Shown one piece after another: positions 35,682-56,187 of a stretch of 64,000 nucleotides of DNA; positions within the stretch are counted from its first letter, which is position 1; each line of letters starts with the position of its first letter. Position numbers and translations under genes: made by a program. The DNA comes from Idiomarina sp. MD25a (lineage in GTDB: Bacteria; Pseudomonadota; Gammaproteobacteria; Enterobacterales; Alteromonadaceae), in contig NZ_MDGT01000001.1 of NCBI RefSeq assembly GCF_001870515.1, positions 1-64,000 of the forward strand, written 5' to 3'. The notes beneath the pieces were generated by a model. It worked only from the letters and a program-made list of their open reading frames with translations. It was not told the DNA's origin and searched no databases.

Positions 35682-37721
35682 ATGTCCAACGCCAAAGGAA
35701 ATTGGCGCAACGCCATTTTGGTTCCCGTCTTCCTCCCCGCAGTTATCGTTATAGCCTTATTGGTAGTAGGCACTTTAAGCGCACCGGAGCTAGCTGGCAA
35801 CCTTTTTAGTGCAACTCTAGCTGGAATCACGGAGCATTTCGGTTGGTTTTATATGCTAGCCGTCGCATTATTCTTGATTTTTATTGTCGGTGTTGCCTTA
35901 TCACGATGGGGACGAATTAAACTCGGACCCGATCATTGCGAACCCGAGTATAGCTTTACCTCATGGTTCGCCATGCTCTTCTCCGCCGGATACGGCATTG
36001 CGTTATTATTTTTCGGTGTTGCAGAGCCTGTATTGCACTTTGCCGAGCCTCCAGTTGGGGCCGCCGAAACCGTCGATGCCGCTAAACAAGCGATGCAAAT
36101 CGCCTACTTCCACTGGGGCTTTCACATCTGGGCTATTTACGGCCTGGTAGGTCTTGTTCTGGCATATTTTTCCTTTCGGCATGGTCTACCGCTATCGATG
36201 CGGTCGACCTTATATCCTTTAATTGGTGATAAGATTCACGGCCCAGCAGGACACACTATCGACACTTTTGCGATTCTGAGCACCCTGTTTGGTATCGCAA
36301 CCACGCTGGGTCTTTCGGTTATCCAAATAAATACGGGATTGAATTACCTTTGGGAGGACATCCCCGTTGATACCACGGTACAAGTGATTGCCATTGCCGT
36401 GATTACGCTTGCCGCCATTGCTTCGGTTGTTGCCGGCATGGACAAAGGGATAAAGCGCCTTTCTCTATTGAACATGGCGCTGGTGATGTTCTTGCTGATA
36501 TTCGTTTTTGCAGTGGGTCCAACTATCCATATTCTTGAGACTTACCTACAAAACACAGGCGCCTACTTGAGTGGCATCGTGGAACGTACCTTCAATCTGC
36601 AGGCCTATACCCGCAGTGATTGGATAGGTAACTGGACACTCTTTATCTTCGGTTGGACCATCGCTTGGGCACCATTTGTCGGTCTATTTATTGCCAAAAT
36701 CAGTCGTGGGCGCACGATTCGTCAGTTCGTCTTGGGTGTGATGTTAGTGCCCACGTTCTTTACTTTCTTTTGGTTCGCGGTATTTGGGGATACGGCGCTT
36801 AACATGATTATGAACGAGGGCTATACCTCGTTGATCTCCGAGGTGCAAAACAACCAAGCTATCGCGTTGTTTAAGCTATTTGAAAACTTGCCACTTACGA
36901 ATGTACTGAGCTTCGCGACCGTACTATTAATTATTACCTTTTTCGTCACATCATCTGACTCTGGCTCGCTCGTTGTCGACTCGCTGGCGTCTGGCGGTGT
37001 TGGTGAAACGCCTGTATGGCAGCGCGTCTTCTGGGCATCGACCGAAGGCTTAGTTGCTGCGGTACTGCTCGTTGCAGGTGGTTTAAATGCATTACAGACC
37101 GCAGCCATCACAAGCGCCTTTCCGTTTGCGATTATCATATTGATTGCTGCCGTCGGCATGTGGCGCGCGTTAGTTATTGAGGGTCACCAGTATTCAAGCC
37201 TGAAGAGTCACCGTCAGTCTCACCGCCGTGGCGTTAACGAAGGACCTGATTACTGGAAGAAGCGGTTACGTGGCTTGGTCAAATTCCCGCAGCAAAGCGA
37301 AGTAAAAGAGTTTATTTATGGTCGTGCGAGCGAAGCTTTAGAGAAGGTCAAAGCTGAGCTCGAGGCACAAGATTGGCCCGCTCAATTTACTAAAGACGAA
37401 GAGCATGAACGTATTATGCTAACCGTTGAACGCGAAGGCGACCTCGACTTTGCCTACGAAATTCGTTTACGTGAGTATTCGATGCCGCAATTTGTGCTAC
37501 GTCCTAGCCACAAGAATGAGCACTACTATCGTGCCGAGCTGTTCTTACGCCAAGGCGGTCAATCATACGATCTCTATGGTTACGAAATGACAGATATTAT
37601 TAATGATGTCATTAACCAGTTCGAAAACTACTTACACTTTAGACATCACAGCCCAGGTGTACTGCCGTGGGAGATGGAAAAGCACGATGAGGATTTACAA
37701 GACATCGAAACCAATAAGTAA
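35682..37721 (+). CDS. betT: BCCT-family choline/betaine transporter, BetT-like
   Basis: A 679-residue inner-membrane carrier, close to E. coli BetT (677), with twelve helices and a cytoplasmic C-terminal domain of about 170 residues. BCCT landmarks are KLGPDHCEPEYSF, the glycine-rich FSAGYGIALLFFGVAEP, and WTIAWAPFVGLFIAKISRGRTIRQF. The latter holds the tryptophan box for the quaternary amine and the ISRGRTIRQF helix. The C-terminal tail, with a Y-R-AE-FL-GGQ-YDL pattern, is the osmosensing extension of BetT. It takes up choline, or possibly betaine, as osmoprotectant using the proton or sodium gradient. No bet oxidation genes are adjacent. AGGAGC precedes the ATG. Confidence 0.92.
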   Translation: MSNAKGNWRNAILVPVFLPAVIVIALLVVGTLSAPELAGNLFSATLAGITEHFGWFYMLAVALFLIFIVGVALSRWGRIKLGPDHCEPEYSFTSWFAMLFSAGYGIALLFFGVAEPVLHFAEPPVGAAETVDAAKQAMQIAYFHWGFHIWAIYGLVGLVLAYFSFRHGLPLSMRSTLYPLIGDKIHGPAGHTIDTFAILSTLFGIATTLGLSVIQINTGLNYLWEDIPVDTTVQVIAIAVITLAAIASVVAGMDKGIKRLSLLNMALVMFLLIFVFAVGPTIHILETYLQNTGAYLSGIVERTFNLQAYTRSDWIGNWTLFIFGWTIAWAPFVGLFIAKISRGRTIRQFVLGVMLVPTFFTFFWFAVFGDTALNMIMNEGYTSLISEVQNNQAIALFKLFENLPLTNVLSFATVLLIITFFVTSSDSGSLVVDSLASGGVGETPVWQRVFWASTEGLVAAVLLVAGGLNALQTAAITSAFPFAIIILIAAVGMWRALVIEGHQYSSLKSHRQSHRRGVNEGPDYWKKRLRGLVKFPQQSEVKEFIYGRASEALEKVKAELEAQDWPAQFTKDEEHERIMLTVEREGDLDFAYEIRLREYSMPQFVLRPSHKNEHYYRAELFLRQGGQSYDLYGYEMTDIINDVINQFENYLHFRHHSPGVLPWEMEKHDEDLQDIETNK

Positions 37722-47934: not shown

Positions 47935-48834
47935 CTAACCGGCTAATGCGATTAAATAATCCGCCAACGCACCCATGCCAGTTTTAGCAACGTGCGCACG
48001 CTGCTCGGCGTCTTGGTTATAATTTGTATTGGTATTCACATCATAAACAAACAGTTCACCCTGACTGTTTTCTATAAACTCAATGCCTGCTACGTCAATG
48101 TCATTACTACGTAAGAACGTTTCCAATTGGTGAATAATCGAGTGTTCATTAAAACGCGTGGTAATTTTGAATTTTTCAGCAATCTCACAAGCATCCGCTG
48201 GGCACAATTCGAAGCCCTGTTCAGTATTAACCTGCACCGCGTAAACGAACTTCTGACCGACGAATTCAGCCCGCGTAATAACCGGTGATTTAGCCTTTAT
48301 ATATTGTTGCACTAACCAGGTACCATCGAGCGGCTCCTCATAGTCGGCACTCTCTGTATAAGCAACCAACTCATCAAGCTGATTGAACTTTTGTACGCCG
48401 AGACCTTTACCTCCACGGTTAGGCTTGACGATTAAAGGCCAATCGTTAAATTGCCTCGCAGCTTCAACGAGTTGCGCTTTACCAACTGCTGCAAAAGTAC
48501 GCGGTACCGACAAGCCTGAACGTTGCAATGCGGCATACTGTGAAAGTTTACACACCTCGAGCGCTAACACTTGCGAACCATTCACGACGGTACGATTCTG
48601 GCTTTCTAACCAAGTTAACACCAGCTTAGTCAGTTCCGGCGCGAAGCGATGTCCCCGCGTATGTGACGACGCGCTCATTCGATTGTAGTAAACCGCATCG
48701 TCCGGTTGGTCATGAAACGGTACAACACCTTCATCTAAAAACCAGCTTTTAGGTGTCACGCCACGTTCTCCGAACGCTTTGTATAGAGGCTTCAACCATT
48801 CTTCATTTTCGTGCAAGATTACGATATCGCGCAT
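47935..48834 (-). CDS. RimK-like ATP-grasp ligase
   Basis: A 299-residue ATP-grasp protein of the RimK/glutathione-synthetase group. The glycine-rich ATP loop is PLIVKPNRGGKGLGVQ near residue 140. A central WLVQQYIKAK segment follows, and the metal-binding end is FIENSQGELFVYDVNTNTNYN, with a D-N-N-N pattern. Such enzymes join an amino acid to a carboxylate (for example glutamate tails or peptide-like metabolites), and the substrate here is unknown. It is not close enough to known RimK to call ribosomal S6 modification. It is monocistronic, convergent with the iron receptor and divergent from the DASS transporter (44 bases). Confidence 0.82.
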   Translation of the reverse strand: MRDIVILHENEEWLKPLYKAFGERGVTPKSWFLDEGVVPFHDQPDDAVYYNRMSASSHTRGHRFAPELTKLVLTWLESQNRTVVNGSQVLALEVCKLSQYAALQRSGLSVPRTFAAVGKAQLVEAARQFNDWPLIVKPNRGGKGLGVQKFNQLDELVAYTESADYEEPLDGTWLVQQYIKAKSPVITRAEFVGQKFVYAVQVNTEQGFELCPADACEIAEKFKITTRFNEHSIIHQLETFLRSNDIDVAGIEFIENSQGELFVYDVNTNTNYNQDAEQRAHVAKTGMGALADYLIALAG

Positions 48835-52025: not shown

Positions 52026-53279
52026 ATGGCAGAGACACTCTCGTCACAGTATTGGGCCGAGGGATATTGGATGAACGATATTCCCATCCTGCTCGGAATT
52101 GTCGCTGCGATCTGGCTTTTACTGGTTATCGCTGCGGCGTTTGAAGCGTTCCGGCACAAATTACTGGTCGATAAAATTCCAGTACGAGTGCATGTTAATG
52201 GGACCCGCGGCAAAACCAGTGTCACTCGGCTTATCGCAGCGGGCTTAAGATCAGGTGGCAAGCGTATTTGCGCTAAAACCACCGGCTCTGCAGCCGCTAT
52301 CACTGACCCTCAAGGAAGAGAGTTTCCTATCTACCGCATTAGCGGTGCCAACATTATTGAGCAAATGCGCACGCTCAAACGCATGGCCTCACTTAAACCC
52401 GAAATTGTAGTGATGGAATGTATGGCACTGCAGCCACATTACCAATCGCTCAGCGAACTGCGTATGGTGCGCTCTAACGTGGGCGTCATCACCAATGCGC
52501 GCGCCGACCACCTGGATGTCATGGGTCCGGGCGAAGAGGACGTTGCCTTAGCATTAGCGGGCAGCACACCCGTCAAAGGTAATCTCTTCACGGCAGAACG
52601 CGATCTATTAGGTGTTTTCGAGCACTCGACCAAAGACCGCAACAGTCAGCTACACGGCGTCACTGAACAAGAGGTCGACGCCATCGGTGACGATATTCTC
52701 AAGCAATTTAAATATTCCGAACATGCTGAGAATGTGGCGTTGGCATTAAAAGTTTGCGAGCACCTCGGTGTTGAGCGAGAGCAGGCATTGCAAGGCATGA
52801 TTGGACTCGAACCCGAAGCCGGCGCTATGCAAGTACTTCACGTAAATTATTTCCGCCGCGAAATTGTTTTCGTTAATGCATTTGCTGCAAACGATCCCGA
52901 GTCGACCGGTAAGATTTGGGAAAACATGCTAGAAAAACACGGCAAGGAGCGCAAACGCATTGTATTGATCAACTGCCGAGCCGACCGTCCGCACCGTTCT
53001 CAGCAAATGGCTGAGGCTGCTGTTGAGTGGACCCAAGCGGATCGCTATATCCTGATGGGTTCAGGCACCTTTATTTTTGTTCGCGCCGCAGTGAAATACG
53101 GACTCGACCCAGAAAAAATTCTCGTAATGGAGAACGCTGCCATTACTGATATTACCGAAACCTTGCTGGAAGAAGCTGGCAACAGTGCACTCGTTGTCGG
53201 CATGTGTAACATTCATGGTGGCGGCGAAGAAGTCGCTCGGTTCTTCCAAAACCGTTCCTTGAAGGAGGAAGACCTGTGA
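52026..53279 (+). CDS. pgsB: Poly-gamma-glutamate synthase subunit PgsB/CapB
   Basis: A 417-residue amide ligase of the Mur-ligase-like family that polymerises glutamate through gamma-amide bonds. One N-terminal membrane helix (about residues 19-40) is followed by the P-loop HVNGTRGKTSVTR (58-68) and a conserved TNARADHLDVMG segment. It ends with a CNIHGGGEEV region. This matches PgsB/CapB, including the usual membrane anchor. The stop overlaps the pgsC GTG start (GTGA), so synthesis of the two subunits is coupled. The product would be a secreted or surface polymer of glutamate. Confidence 0.93.
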   Translation: MAETLSSQYWAEGYWMNDIPILLGIVAAIWLLLVIAAAFEAFRHKLLVDKIPVRVHVNGTRGKTSVTRLIAAGLRSGGKRICAKTTGSAAAITDPQGREFPIYRISGANIIEQMRTLKRMASLKPEIVVMECMALQPHYQSLSELRMVRSNVGVITNARADHLDVMGPGEEDVALALAGSTPVKGNLFTAERDLLGVFEHSTKDRNSQLHGVTEQEVDAIGDDILKQFKYSEHAENVALALKVCEHLGVEREQALQGMIGLEPEAGAMQVLHVNYFRREIVFVNAFAANDPESTGKIWENMLEKHGKERKRIVLINCRADRPHRSQQMAEAAVEWTQADRYILMGSGTFIFVRAAVKYGLDPEKILVMENAAITDITETLLEEAGNSALVVGMCNIHGGGEEVARFFQNRSLKEEDL

Positions 53280-53851
53280 TCGCATTAAATATTTTAGCCG
53301 TTGCCATTGGCATCGGATTGTTCTTTACGTTATTGCTCACACAAACGCTCGGACTCGCCGCCGGTGGCCTCGTTGTTCCTGGTTATGTTGCCCTGCAACT
53401 GACCGAACCCATGAGTCTGGTGATTACGCTCGTAGCGGCCTTGCTCACGTTCTTGATCGTGCGCGTAATATCTAGTTTTGCCATTATTTACGGCCGTCGA
53501 CAAACGATCATTATGATCCTGACTGGCTATCTCATCGCAGGCTTGATGGATTTGTTCCTCGGCAGCTTAGTTAACTGGGTCGATTTACAAATGGTCGCGG
53601 GTGGTGACGATGCACAAGCACAAGTCGCGACACTGGAGTCATCCTTTATGATGGCCGTCATGTCGAGCAATATTATCGGCTATATTATTCCCGGTCTGAT
53701 CGCGATCTGGTTTGAACGCCAAGGTGTTCTGCAGACGCTGTGCGGCTTGGCCGTCACCGCCGTATTAGTGCGCCTCGCACTGATTGTCATCATGCCTGAA
53801 GCGTTGCAGATGTATGAAGCAAGCAGCGCCTTCCACATGCCTGGCTGGTAA
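53276..53851 (+). CDS. pgsC: Poly-gamma-glutamate synthesis membrane subunit PgsC/CapC
   Basis: A 191-residue membrane protein with about five hydrophobic segments. The conserved start LGLAAGGLVVPGYVAL and the central YGRRQTIIMILTGYLIAG are hallmarks of PgsC/CapC, which forms the synthase complex with PgsB. It is longer than the Bacillus protein (about 149 residues), with extra sequence around residues 100-130. The GTG start overlaps the pgsB stop. Confidence 0.92.
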   Translation: MIALNILAVAIGIGLFFTLLLTQTLGLAAGGLVVPGYVALQLTEPMSLVITLVAALLTFLIVRVISSFAIIYGRRQTIIMILTGYLIAGLMDLFLGSLVNWVDLQMVAGGDDAQAQVATLESSFMMAVMSSNIIGYIIPGLIAIWFERQGVLQTLCGLAVTAVLVRLALIVIMPEALQMYEASSAFHMPGW

Positions 53852-53863
53852 GGAGAATCCCAA

Positions 53864-55015
53864 ATGAGTAGTTTTACTAAGATTTATTGGCGTTCTTCAG
53901 GTGTGCCAGCCTGGGGACTCATCGTATTAATGATCGCGGCATTAATTGCTTTACTCGCCGTCGAAAACGTTAAAGAAACCGATCCAATCGTGGACGAAAA
54001 CTACGCCACCATGGTAACGGCTGCAAAAATTATGCGCCAAGGAATGGAAGTCATCCGTCCATTGCGCGCTGAAAAGGAGCCGATTAACCCAGAGTTCGAC
54101 CCTCAACGCTCGGGCTTTGTCGGTCTCGATAATAGCATCGTCACGACTAACCATGGTGGACGCGAGTCTAAACAGACCACAGTGAACCCCAACTGGGCAG
54201 CCGTGGCGGTTAAACTATTAGCTAAAGCAGGCGTTAAAAAAGGTGACTTAGTCGCGGTGACTGTATCTGGCTCTTTCCCTGCTCTAAACCTTGCCGTGTA
54301 TTCTGCAATTGAAGCCATGGAAGCGGAGCCGGTTATTATCGCTTCGGCGTCGTCATCGCAGTGGGGAGCTAACGTACCCGGTTTCTTGTGGTTGGACATG
54401 GCACGTGAACTCAACAAAGCCGGCGTGATCTCGTTCGAGCCTAAATATGCCTCGATTGGCGGCATCGAAGACCGCGGCATTGGTATCCCACAAGCCGGTA
54501 TTCAATCGATTCGTCAAACGATTGAACGCGCTGGCTTGCCGATTATTGAACCGGCGAACTATCAAGAAGCGGTGGCCGACCGTATCGCGATTTTCCGTGA
54601 ATACTCATCCGATCGTAACTACAAAGCGTTCGTCAACGTCGGCGGTGGTGCGACTATCGTAGGTCCTCCAGGTATCGATGATATGTTTAAATCAGGACTA
54701 CAGTACGACGCACCGGCTCGCGCTTACGCGGTGGATACGGTGATGGGCTACTTCTTACAAGAGAATATCCCAGGCATTCATTTTATCGGCATTAAGAAAA
54801 TGGCGGAACGCTACGGTCTTCCACTCATGCCTCCCGAGCCTGTGCCCGTCGGTAATGGCGGTATCTATTCCTCAAGCACATACAGTCGGTTACTCGCTTT
54901 CGGGCTCGCTGTGGCATTGTTTGGACTCACTTGGCTCATCGTGCGTTCAGCGCGGATCACCAGCCTCTGGCGTCGCGATAGTAGTAGCGGTAAAGGCACT
55001 AAACCGATGGTATAA
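53864..55015 (+). CDS. Poly-gamma-glutamate system protein (PgsW-like)
   Basis: A 383-residue protein with one membrane helix near each end (about residues 18-34 and 345-362) and a large loop between. The middle contains VTVSGSFPALNLAVYSAIEAM, SSSQWGANVPGFLWLDM and VNVGGGATIVGPPG. Genes of this family are found immediately after pgsBC in several bacteria and are called poly-gamma-glutamate system protein; the biochemical role is unknown. It is 12 bases after pgsC with AGGAGAA before the ATG. No pgsA/capA or pgsE is present, so this protein may stand in for release or transport. Confidence 0.84.
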   Translation: MSSFTKIYWRSSGVPAWGLIVLMIAALIALLAVENVKETDPIVDENYATMVTAAKIMRQGMEVIRPLRAEKEPINPEFDPQRSGFVGLDNSIVTTNHGGRESKQTTVNPNWAAVAVKLLAKAGVKKGDLVAVTVSGSFPALNLAVYSAIEAMEAEPVIIASASSSQWGANVPGFLWLDMARELNKAGVISFEPKYASIGGIEDRGIGIPQAGIQSIRQTIERAGLPIIEPANYQEAVADRIAIFREYSSDRNYKAFVNVGGGATIVGPPGIDDMFKSGLQYDAPARAYAVDTVMGYFLQENIPGIHFIGIKKMAERYGLPLMPPEPVPVGNGGIYSSSTYSRLLAFGLAVALFGLTWLIVRSARITSLWRRDSSSGKGTKPMV

Positions 55016-55059: not shown

Positions 55060-56187
55060 TTACCAGAAATTAAACCGTGACCATTGTTCGCTCAATTGCC
55101 CCTCTGCATCAGCAACATAATACTTATCGAACTGAGAGGCTGTGGCACAAGCATGATTCGGAAGGATGCGTAATTTATCGCCGATCTGAACATCGCTGGG
55201 TATTTCGCTCGAGCCTGCACGCTGTTTAATGACCCCATGCTCTTGGCTAGTGCTCTCTACTATCCAGTCGGTAAGCGGTCGTCCCGCAGCATCTAGCACC
55301 ATACCATAGCCATAATCGACCGCTTGCGATGCTGTACCGCGGTCGCGCGATAACGCCATCCAGCCCGCATCAATGAGGATCCAACCTTTCTCCGGCTTCA
55401 CCCCTATGACAGTGGTCACCACAGATAACGCGATATCATCAAGTGAGCACACATTGATATTCGCCATCACTAAATCAAAAAATGTATAAACACCGGCACG
55501 CACTTCCGTCACGCCCGTGAGATCTTGGGCAAAGTGTGCGGTAGGCGTAGAGCCGATACTGACCATCGGGCAGTCAATTCCTACCAGTTCAAGTCGCTCC
55601 TTCACATGAACCGCAGTGGCACGTTCGTTCTCAGCCGCCGCGACTTTGTCTGAACGTGTCATACAACCGTACGAGCCACCTGCATGCAACAGAATACCCT
55701 TAAAAAGTTCGGCTTGCGCTAGGATTTTGCTGACATCCATCAGCGTAGGACTCTCAGCAGTTAATCCTGCACGGCTGCCATCGCAGTCAATTTCAATAAG
55801 CACAGGAATAACGATGTCATGCATACGACAAAACTCGACCACCTGAAGCGCCTGTGTCTCACTCTCTAAGATGATTTTTAAATCAACGCCTTGTTCGATC
55901 AACCGCTTAACGTGAGGCAGTTTGTTCTGCGCAATCCCCACCGCATAAATTTGATCTAGAAAGCCGTGTTCTGCAAAAAAGTCAGCTTCTTTTAGCGTCG
56001 ATACGGTAATCGGTCCCGTGCCACCATTAAAGATAGCCTTAACCGCAGGCAGCGATTTGAGCGTTTTTACGTGGGGCCGCAAGGGCGTCTTTAATGCGCT
56101 GAGATGGCAGTTCAAACGCTTGATATTGGCATCAAACCGCGGACGATCAACACGTAAATAAGGCGTTTCAAGCGCATCCCATGTCAT
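55060..56187 (-). CDS. DSD1-type PLP enzyme (D-serine dehydratase/D-threonine aldolase-like)
   Basis: A 375-residue fold-type III PLP enzyme. An alanine-racemase-like barrel carries the PLP lysine in RPHVKTLKS (Lys41), EIDCDGSRAGL and a GSTPTAHF phosphate-binding turn. The C-terminal domain ends with the zinc-binding NHACAT pair (His345, Cys347) found in eukaryotic-type D-serine dehydratases and D-threonine aldolases. It should act on a D-amino acid. It starts directly after the LOG-family gene and is the last of the LysR-DUF1543-LOG-DSD1 run. Confidence 0.9.
   Translation of the reverse strand: MTWDALETPYLRVDRPRFDANIKRLNCHLSALKTPLRPHVKTLKSLPAVKAIFNGGTGPITVSTLKEADFFAEHGFLDQIYAVGIAQNKLPHVKRLIEQGVDLKIILESETQALQVVEFCRMHDIVIPVLIEIDCDGSRAGLTAESPTLMDVSKILAQAELFKGILLHAGGSYGCMTRSDKVAAAENERATAVHVKERLELVGIDCPMVSIGSTPTAHFAQDLTGVTEVRAGVYTFFDLVMANINVCSLDDIALSVVTTVIGVKPEKGWILIDAGWMALSRDRGTASQAVDYGYGMVLDAAGRPLTDWIVESTSQEHGVIKQRAGSSEIPSDVQIGDKLRILPNHACATASQFDKYYVADAEGQLSEQWSRFNFW

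What the first reader, a model, noticed from the sequence alone, without database searches (positions are those of the whole stretch)
52026..55015. Poly-gamma-glutamate genes pgsB-pgsC-pgsW-like without pgsA
A Gram-negative, core-genome window carries a compact pgs operon. Bacillus and Francisella systems use CapA/PgsA for transport or release. Here the third gene is a PgsW-like protein with two terminal membrane helices and a conserved soluble loop of unknown chemistry. Gram-negative gamma-PGA may serve for osmotic tolerance or attachment, which would suit the neighbouring BetT-like osmolyte transporter.
Basis: partly seen in the sequence, partly recalled or inferred. Interest (0 to 1): 0.5.

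Follow-up and report, generated by a model that had tools for sequence, protein, structure and literature searches.

The report
Gram-negative poly-glutamate operon with PgsW
A marine Idiomarina bacterium carries the three-gene PgsB-PgsC-PgsW set that some other Gram-negative bacteria also carry, probably to make and export a glutamate polymer; the set is already named in databases, but what its third protein does is not known.

Summary
Three intact genes at 52026-55015 match NCBIfam PgsB (509 bits), PgsC (115) and TIGR04332 'poly-gamma-glutamate system protein' (346), gene symbol pgsW in RefSeq. The host is Idiomarina baltica or very close. 'Without pgsA' is the normal state here: in three overlapping samples of Pseudomonadota genomes, ordinary-length PgsB over its cut-off and PgsW occur in exactly the same genomes, 25 of 246, 6 of 369 and 1 of 299. 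Strong CapA/PgsA-domain proteins occur in 6 of the 30 PgsW genomes, beside pgsBCW in two. This genome's copy lies in a polysaccharide locus. The contrast with Francisella is probably wrong: its 'CapA' FTT_0807 is itself listed as a poly-gamma-glutamate system protein (PMC5362203). PgsW shows no relation to CapA, is predicted to be anchored at both ends with a periplasmic domain, and has 22 invariant residues. Most likely it is the obligate third subunit handling the chain in the periplasm. The BetT link is unsupported (14 kb away). A known kind with an unsolved subunit.

The parts
52026..53279 (+). pgsB: Mur-ligase-like amide ligase with an N-terminal hydrophobic segment and a P-loop (starting at residue 58); predicted ATP-dependent poly-gamma-glutamate synthase subunit
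   Evidence: TIGR04012 508.9 bits, cut-off 222.7; PF08245; hydrophobic segment at 21-39; P-loop; no relative among PDB sequences at E 0.001
53276..53851 (+). pgsC: small multi-span membrane protein, predicted membrane partner of PgsB
   Evidence: TIGR04011 115 bits, cut-off 96.45; PF14102; about five hydrophobic segments; overlaps the pgsB stop codon by 4 bases
53864..55015 (+). pgsW: two-span membrane protein with a soluble alpha/beta domain of about 300 residues, predicted to be periplasmic
   Evidence: TIGR04332 345.6 bits, cut-off 100; the only copy in the genome; charge pattern N-in/C-in; 22 residues invariant over 16 diverse rows; B-C-W order in 21 of 21 loci examined

Best explanation
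This is the Gram-negative (B-C-W) form of the poly-gamma-glutamate synthase/export complex. PgsB, anchored by its N-terminal helix, would join glutamates through an acyl-phosphate (Mur-ligase chemistry). PgsC would form the membrane partner through which the chain leaves. PgsW, tethered at both ends with its domain in the periplasm, would be an obligate subunit that receives, guides or releases the chain on the far side: the position that PgsA/CapA holds in Bacillus, filled by an unrelated protein. Shown here: gene identity, order, co-occurrence of B and W in every sampled genome that has either, parallel divergence of B and W, and no detectable relation between W and CapA. Inferred: polymer identity, topology and PgsW's role.
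For: Family models well over cut-off. Ordinary-length PgsB over its cut-off and PgsW sit in the same genomes: 25 of 246, 6 of 369, 1 of 299; in the 25 family-sample genomes the two lie close together on the same contig and strand. Order B-C-W in 21 of 21 loci examined, from Idiomarinaceae to a Fusobacteriota plasmid. PgsB and PgsW pairwise distances correlate, r = 0.99 over 231 non-independent pairs. dN/dS of pgsW 0.03-0.10 in 5 of 6 pairs, undefined in one. Strong PF09587 in only 6 of 30 PgsW genomes. W against a CapA profile of three proteins: probability 0.1%. Positive residues in both tails. Literature passages: in Bacillus, PgsBC polymerise and PgsA/PgsE mediate transport (PMC5751247); Fusobacterium nucleatum is listed as a Gram-negative PGA producer (PMC3815933).
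Against: No product has been shown in Idiomarina; one search found one unrelated review, and none of the 15 papers listed of 629 mentions Idiomarina. In Francisella the capBCA locus is needed for virulence, but capB and capC were reported as not needed for capsule (PMC4688374 passages), so the product may not be a capsule there. The PMC3815933 passage calls the F. nucleatum system homologous to that of B. subtilis and does not mention pgsW, so that producer may not be a B-C-W case. In two relatives (G315, G334) a CapA-domain protein follows pgsW directly, so W and CapA are not strict alternatives. The PgsW models are weak (mean pLDDT 56.3 and 60.5). Topology rests on hydropathy and charge only, and 4 of 16 rows show further weak hydrophobic stretches inside the soluble domain at the lower threshold used.
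Confidence: 0.72

Rival explanations
1. PgsW is a processing enzyme: a periplasmic hydrolase or transpeptidase that cuts, releases or anchors the polymer (works like PgdS or CapD), and is not needed for synthesis.
For: Invariant polar residues (T94, K103, N108, D128, S137, S161, S165, D203, N258) could be a catalytic or binding site. Neighbours in other lineages include gamma-glutamyltransferase and a desuccinylase-like gene, or cyanophycinase and an isoaspartyl-peptidase-like gene.
Against: Constant co-occurrence with PgsB is more typical of a core subunit. No match to a hydrolase family in Pfam. No confident fold match.
Confidence: 0.25
2. The CapA-domain protein elsewhere in the genome supplies the PgsA function in trans.
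For: It is present and over the PF09587 cut-off.
Against: It sits in a polysaccharide locus and its translation shows no obvious N-terminal membrane segment (my reading). No strong match was found in the other 10 same-genus genomes searched, nine of which have pgsBCW; four of these ten have a weak match of about 30 bits.
Confidence: 0.05
3. The product is not a gamma-PGA capsule but another isopeptide-linked polymer, or a short chain kept in the periplasm.
For: Francisella capB/capC are reported as not needed for capsule.
Against: PgsB and PgsC pass equivalog cut-offs. None of the 11 same-genus genomes searched has a cyanophycinase over the cut-off, though all have weaker matches; the window genome's best (70 bits, cut-off 126.6) lies 26 kb beyond pgsW. 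I saw no such genes beside pgsBCW in the other loci whose translations I read.
Confidence: 0.15
4. The operon serves osmotic tolerance together with the BetT-like transporter.
For: A BCCT transporter is in the window and the host is a marine bacterium.
Against: It is 14 kb away. Genes within 7 kb of pgsBCW are not conserved between Idiomarina and Pseudidiomarina. A salt role of the polymer itself stays possible but untested.
Confidence: 0.08

Closest known systems
Gram-negative pgsB-pgsC-pgsW operons (TIGR04012, TIGR04011, TIGR04332), e.g. Cetobacterium somerae plasmid NZ_CP143320.1
   Same: Same three genes in the same order, named pgsB, pgsC, pgsW in RefSeq
   Different: Cetobacterium's unit is preceded by a succinylglutamate desuccinylase-like gene, a small ORF, a TRAP permease, DUF6305 and ggt. 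The genes beside pgsBCW in the window that I scanned are other families. Idiomarina PgsW is 64 residues longer and 26-30% identical
Francisella capBCA (FTT_0805-0807)
   Same: A paper lists FTT_0807 CapA as a 'Hypothetical poly-gamma-glutamate system protein', the TIGR04332 name (PMC5362203 passages)
   Different: Studied as a virulence locus with unclear product (PMC4688374 passages; its table gives capA as FTT0805 and capB as FTT0807, the reverse of its own reference to 'CapA membrane protein FTT0807'). A named Francisella sequence was not compared here
Bacillus pgsBCA(E)/capBCA(D)E
   Same: PgsB and PgsC are of the same families (the PgsB model rings over its cut-off in the Bacillus subtilis control or one other control genome, which names six genomes for matches and one over cut-off without saying which)
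   Different: PgsA/CapA is a PF09587 protein (PF09587 rings in the B. subtilis control, TIGR04332 in none of 14 controls). PgsW has no PF09587 match and no profile similarity to CapA
Alteromonadaceae pgsB-pgsC-pgsW-capA units (L040, L041)
   Same: pgsBCW in the same order
   Different: A CapA-domain protein with a CarboxypepD_reg domain follows pgsW directly

Membership tests
PgsBCW (Gram-negative poly-gamma-glutamate synthase) | PgsB over the TIGR04012 equivalog cut-off | tested here: met
   508.9 bits against 222.7
PgsBCW (Gram-negative poly-gamma-glutamate synthase) | PgsC over the TIGR04011 equivalog cut-off | tested here: met
   115.0 bits against 96.45
PgsBCW (Gram-negative poly-gamma-glutamate synthase) | Third gene over the TIGR04332 cut-off, directly downstream of pgsC | tested here: met
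   345.6 bits against 100; 12 bases after pgsC
PgsBCW (Gram-negative poly-gamma-glutamate synthase) | Makes gamma-linked polyglutamate | not testable with these tools
   Needs polymer isolation and NMR
Bacillus-type PgsA/CapA | PF09587 (PGA_cap) domain in the third gene | tested here: not met
   No PF09587 match listed for any of 16 PgsW rows; hhalign probability 0.1% against a small profile of three CapA-domain proteins
ANL adenylate-forming enzymes (resemblance of the PgsW core) | Profile and fold similarity over the whole N-terminal domain | tested here: inconclusive
   Recurs among the top Foldseek rows, but with TM 0.22 or less and rmsd 8.6 A or more; VIA Z up to 6.8 with the full model and 5.3 with the soluble-domain model, tied with unrelated rows; hhalign 48.7% over 32 columns for a four-member profile; single members EntE 0.5, Acs 26.3, FadD 4.7, MenE 0.2, a PaaK-like protein 0.2; nine unrelated single proteins 2.8% or less
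ANL adenylate-forming enzymes (resemblance of the PgsW core) | AMP-binding domain recognised by Pfam | tested here: not met
   No AMP-binding match listed for any of 16 rows at E 10 (HMMER's filters drop most very weak matches)

The most novel reading that the evidence does not exclude
Gram-negative poly-gamma-glutamate systems are a distinct class in which an unrelated two-span protein with a periplasmic alpha/beta domain of unassigned chemistry replaces PgsA as the obligate third subunit. The protein called CapA in Francisella would belong to it, so reading that protein by analogy with Bacillus CapA would be wrong.
Probability: 0.55. Interest if true: 0.5.

Novelty: new member of a known kind. 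Interest (0 to 1): 0.3.

Why it matters
In the genomes sampled PgsW is tied to PgsB without exception, yet no paper in the held library holds TIGR04332, and the four that hold the word PgsW are on other subjects by title and abstract. Idiomarina is not on any list of dangerous germs that I know of and is kept in culture collections (strain names), so the subunit's role could be tested there; the answer would bear on how Gram-negative bacteria export poly-glutamate and on how the Francisella locus is read.

Tried and rejected
Lost-pgsA reading: rejected because B and W co-occur and CapA is mostly absent. CapA elsewhere as partner: unlikely, polysaccharide locus. Gamma-PGA hydrolase PF05908: no match in the genome. 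A gamma-glutamyltransferase is present, one copy, on contig C3, but that family also rings in 8 of 14 control genomes. Cyanophycinase link: 30 of 32 genomes have some match to the model, 4 over the cut-off, three of them the one genus with the gene nearby. Viral contigs: no PgsW relative in two scans. Plasmids: one record of 72,556. Sequence search of PDB with the PgsW profile: three matches with E 1.5-1.7, not credible.

Fold of PgsW: two AlphaFold models from 13 and 12 close sequences, mean pLDDT 56.3 and 60.5. Foldseek and VIA gave only Rossmann-like resemblances, Z below 8. ANL enzymes recur, but the supported similarity is one stretch of 32 columns, and the four-member profile was set against single-protein controls, which is not a fair match; no function is drawn from it. 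Promoter scan: one promoter-like site, on the - strand, against 4.4 expected; terminator-like sites 7 against 3.7 expected, not followed.

Identity of the unnamed genus (G582, G713, G814): genome size, gene content and neighbours suggest Francisella to me, but PDB searches with two of its proteins did not settle it; I leave it as a guess. Rows left out of the PgsB count: PgsB-model matches at E 0.001 or better are in 71 of 246, 54 of 369 and 31 of 299 genomes; all but 26, 6 and 1 are below the cut-off (giant PgsB-like proteins, and short matches that I take for Mur ligases and similar). G390 (223.2 bits against 222.7) passes but is a 1373-residue protein and was left out, so 25 are counted. 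Two genomes of the clade lack both B and W (G462, G306). One row of alignment A2 (L031) was given with coordinates that cut 18 residues off its C-terminus and left an N-terminal extension; its C-tail charge is therefore not counted.
Full report
What is there. The window carries three co-directional, tightly packed genes at exactly the coordinates given. They match the NCBIfam models for PgsB, PgsC and the 'poly-gamma-glutamate system protein' TIGR04332, all above the curated cut-offs. RefSeq uses the gene symbol pgsW for the last family, as seen on a Cetobacterium somerae plasmid. The host is Idiomarina baltica or a very close strain: the PgsW of strain OS145 is identical. PgsB keeps its P-loop, pgsC starts inside the pgsB stop codon, and pgsW starts 12 bases after pgsC. 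pgsW is under strong purifying selection, with dN/dS 0.03-0.10 in five of six comparisons; dS was saturated in the sixth. This is a real, intact operon.

How common it is. In the family sample 25 of 246 genomes have PgsW, among them 10 of 11 of the same genus. In the class sample it is 6 of 369 and in the phylum sample 1 of 299, the window's own genome. The samples overlap. So the system is nearly core in Idiomarina and rare elsewhere in what was sampled.

Is the lack of pgsA special? I searched the same samples for PgsB. Many genomes have some match to the PgsB model (71 of 246, 54 of 369, 31 of 299), but over the cut-off there are 26, 6 and 1. One of the 26 is a 1373-residue protein that barely passes (G390, 223.2 against 222.7 bits); without it, the PgsB genomes are exactly the 25, 6 and 1 PgsW genomes. 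The two clade members that lack PgsW (G462, G306) have no PgsB match either. In all 25 family-sample genomes the two genes lie close together on the same contig and strand. In 21 of 21 loci examined the order is B, C, W. PgsB and PgsW distances over 22 rows correlate at r = 0.99; the 231 pairs are not independent, and few branches of the two trees are well supported.

By contrast, among the 30 PgsW genomes a strong CapA-domain match (PF09587, 108 bits or more) occurs in six (G334, G365, G885, G315, G456, G000); weak ones (21-30 bits) occur in five others; nineteen have none. Of the weak ones I viewed the proteins from two of the five, and a second weak match in G315; they read like 5'-nucleotidases to me. 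Only in G315 and G334 does the CapA-domain gene follow pgsW directly. In G365, G885 and G456 it lies on another contig; G365 is a fragmented assembly, but no CapA-domain gene follows pgsW on its 9.8 kb contig. In the window's own genome it lies on contig C3 in a locus of glycosyltransferase, wecB/wecC-like and polymerase-like genes. PgsW, not PgsA, is therefore the constant partner of PgsBC in the Proteobacteria sampled. That W and CapA coexist in one operon in two genomes shows that W is not simply a swapped-in CapA.

Francisella. The finding contrasts this operon with Francisella CapA. In passages of PMC5362203 the capA product FTT_0807 is listed as 'Hypothetical poly-gamma-glutamate system protein', which is the TIGR04332 name. 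PMC4688374 passages call the locus homologous to the Bacillus anthracis cap locus, report that capB and capC were not needed for capsule, and cite a 2014 study that suggested CapA as an integral inner-membrane protein interacting with CapB and CapC to export carbohydrates (the study itself is not held). The table in that review gives capA as FTT0805 and capB as FTT0807, against the title of the study it cites. I could not score a named Francisella protein, so the correction is probable, not proven.

What PgsW is. It has one hydrophobic segment near each end. In all 16 rows the N-terminal tail carries at least one K or R, and in 15 of 16 rows the C-terminal tail does; in the other row (L031) my coordinates cut the C-terminus. 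This predicts both ends in the cytoplasm and the roughly 300-residue domain in the periplasm. Four rows show further weak hydrophobic stretches inside the domain at the lower threshold used for that comparison. Twenty-two residues are invariant across rows down to 27% identity, including T94, K103, N108, D128, S137, S161, S165, the GAN at 168-170, D203, N258 and GG at 260-261. No Pfam family matches credibly and no PDB sequence does. Two models, built from 13 and 12 close sequences, show a Rossmann-like alpha/beta core with moderate local confidence and an unreliable remainder. Structural matches are weak and mixed. Adenylate-forming (ANL) enzymes recur, and a profile of four E. coli ANL enzymes aligns to one 32-column stretch with 48.7% probability, against 2.8% or less for nine unrelated single proteins; but single ANL members gave 0.2-26%, a PaaK-like protein 0.2%, and a four-member profile against single-protein controls is not an even comparison. 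I treat this as a shared beta-alpha-beta unit, not as evidence for adenylation, which would also be odd in the periplasm.

How it most likely works. In the Bacillus system PgsB and PgsC polymerise and PgsA/PgsE serve transport (PMC5751247 passages). By position and constancy, PgsW most likely fills the outward-facing role here. Whether it guides, cuts or anchors the chain is open; a processing enzyme is the main rival. Polymer identity is inferred from the family models and from Fusobacterium nucleatum being listed as a producer (PMC3815933 passages); those passages call its system homologous to that of B. subtilis and do not mention pgsW, so this support is indirect.

The osmolyte idea. The BCCT (BetT-like) gene is at 35682-37721, 14 kb from pgsB. 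Upstream of pgsB lie a phosphodiesterase-like gene, yjdM and a DASS symporter. Pseudidiomarina loci carry pgsBCW with other neighbours. Nothing found here ties the two.

Verdict. A correct observation of a known but little-studied kind. Its interest lies in the unassigned third subunit and in the likely misnaming of the Francisella protein, not in the operon as such. Statements about print, from search listings only: PgsW as a word is in 4 held papers, all on other subjects by title and abstract; TIGR04332 in none; Idiomarina with polyglutamate in one, a review on surface-active agents; a wider search listed 15 of 629 papers, none with Idiomarina.

Noticed in passing
L097-L099; hits: A family of giant proteins (mostly about 1,350-1,670 aa in open frame) with a PgsB-like domain near residues 720-1075 in the two scanned, a weak HEAT-repeat signal in one, and preceded by an unmatched ORF of about 770-870 aa in the three loci read. 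Seen in other gammaproteobacteria and other Pseudomonadota, below the PgsB cut-off except one just above.
   Followed up: partly
L040:5350-7050 and L041:8567-10687: A CapA-domain protein with an N-terminal CarboxypepD_reg domain directly downstream of pgsW in two Alteromonadaceae genomes.
   Followed up: partly
   Followed up: partly
L044:1469-8876: Cetobacterium plasmid: ggt, DUF6305, TRAP permease, small ORF and succinylglutamate desuccinylase-like gene directly before pgsB-pgsC-pgsW.
   Followed up: no
L040-L042, L052, L053 against the Idiomarinaceae loci: Idiomarinaceae PgsB/PgsW are closer to those of two genomes of other families (G809, G885) than to those of three genomes that the tool places in the window's own family (G315, G334, G365), which suggests past transfer of the operon.
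   Followed up: no
47935-48834 (-): RimK-like ATP-grasp protein, fourth gene upstream of pgsB; present in several of the Idiomarina loci but not in the Pseudidiomarina loci.
   Followed up: no
55060-56187 (-): PLP protein with alanine-racemase-N and D-serine-dehydratase-like domains, convergent with pgsW; found in the three closest of the 12 loci compared.
   Followed up: no
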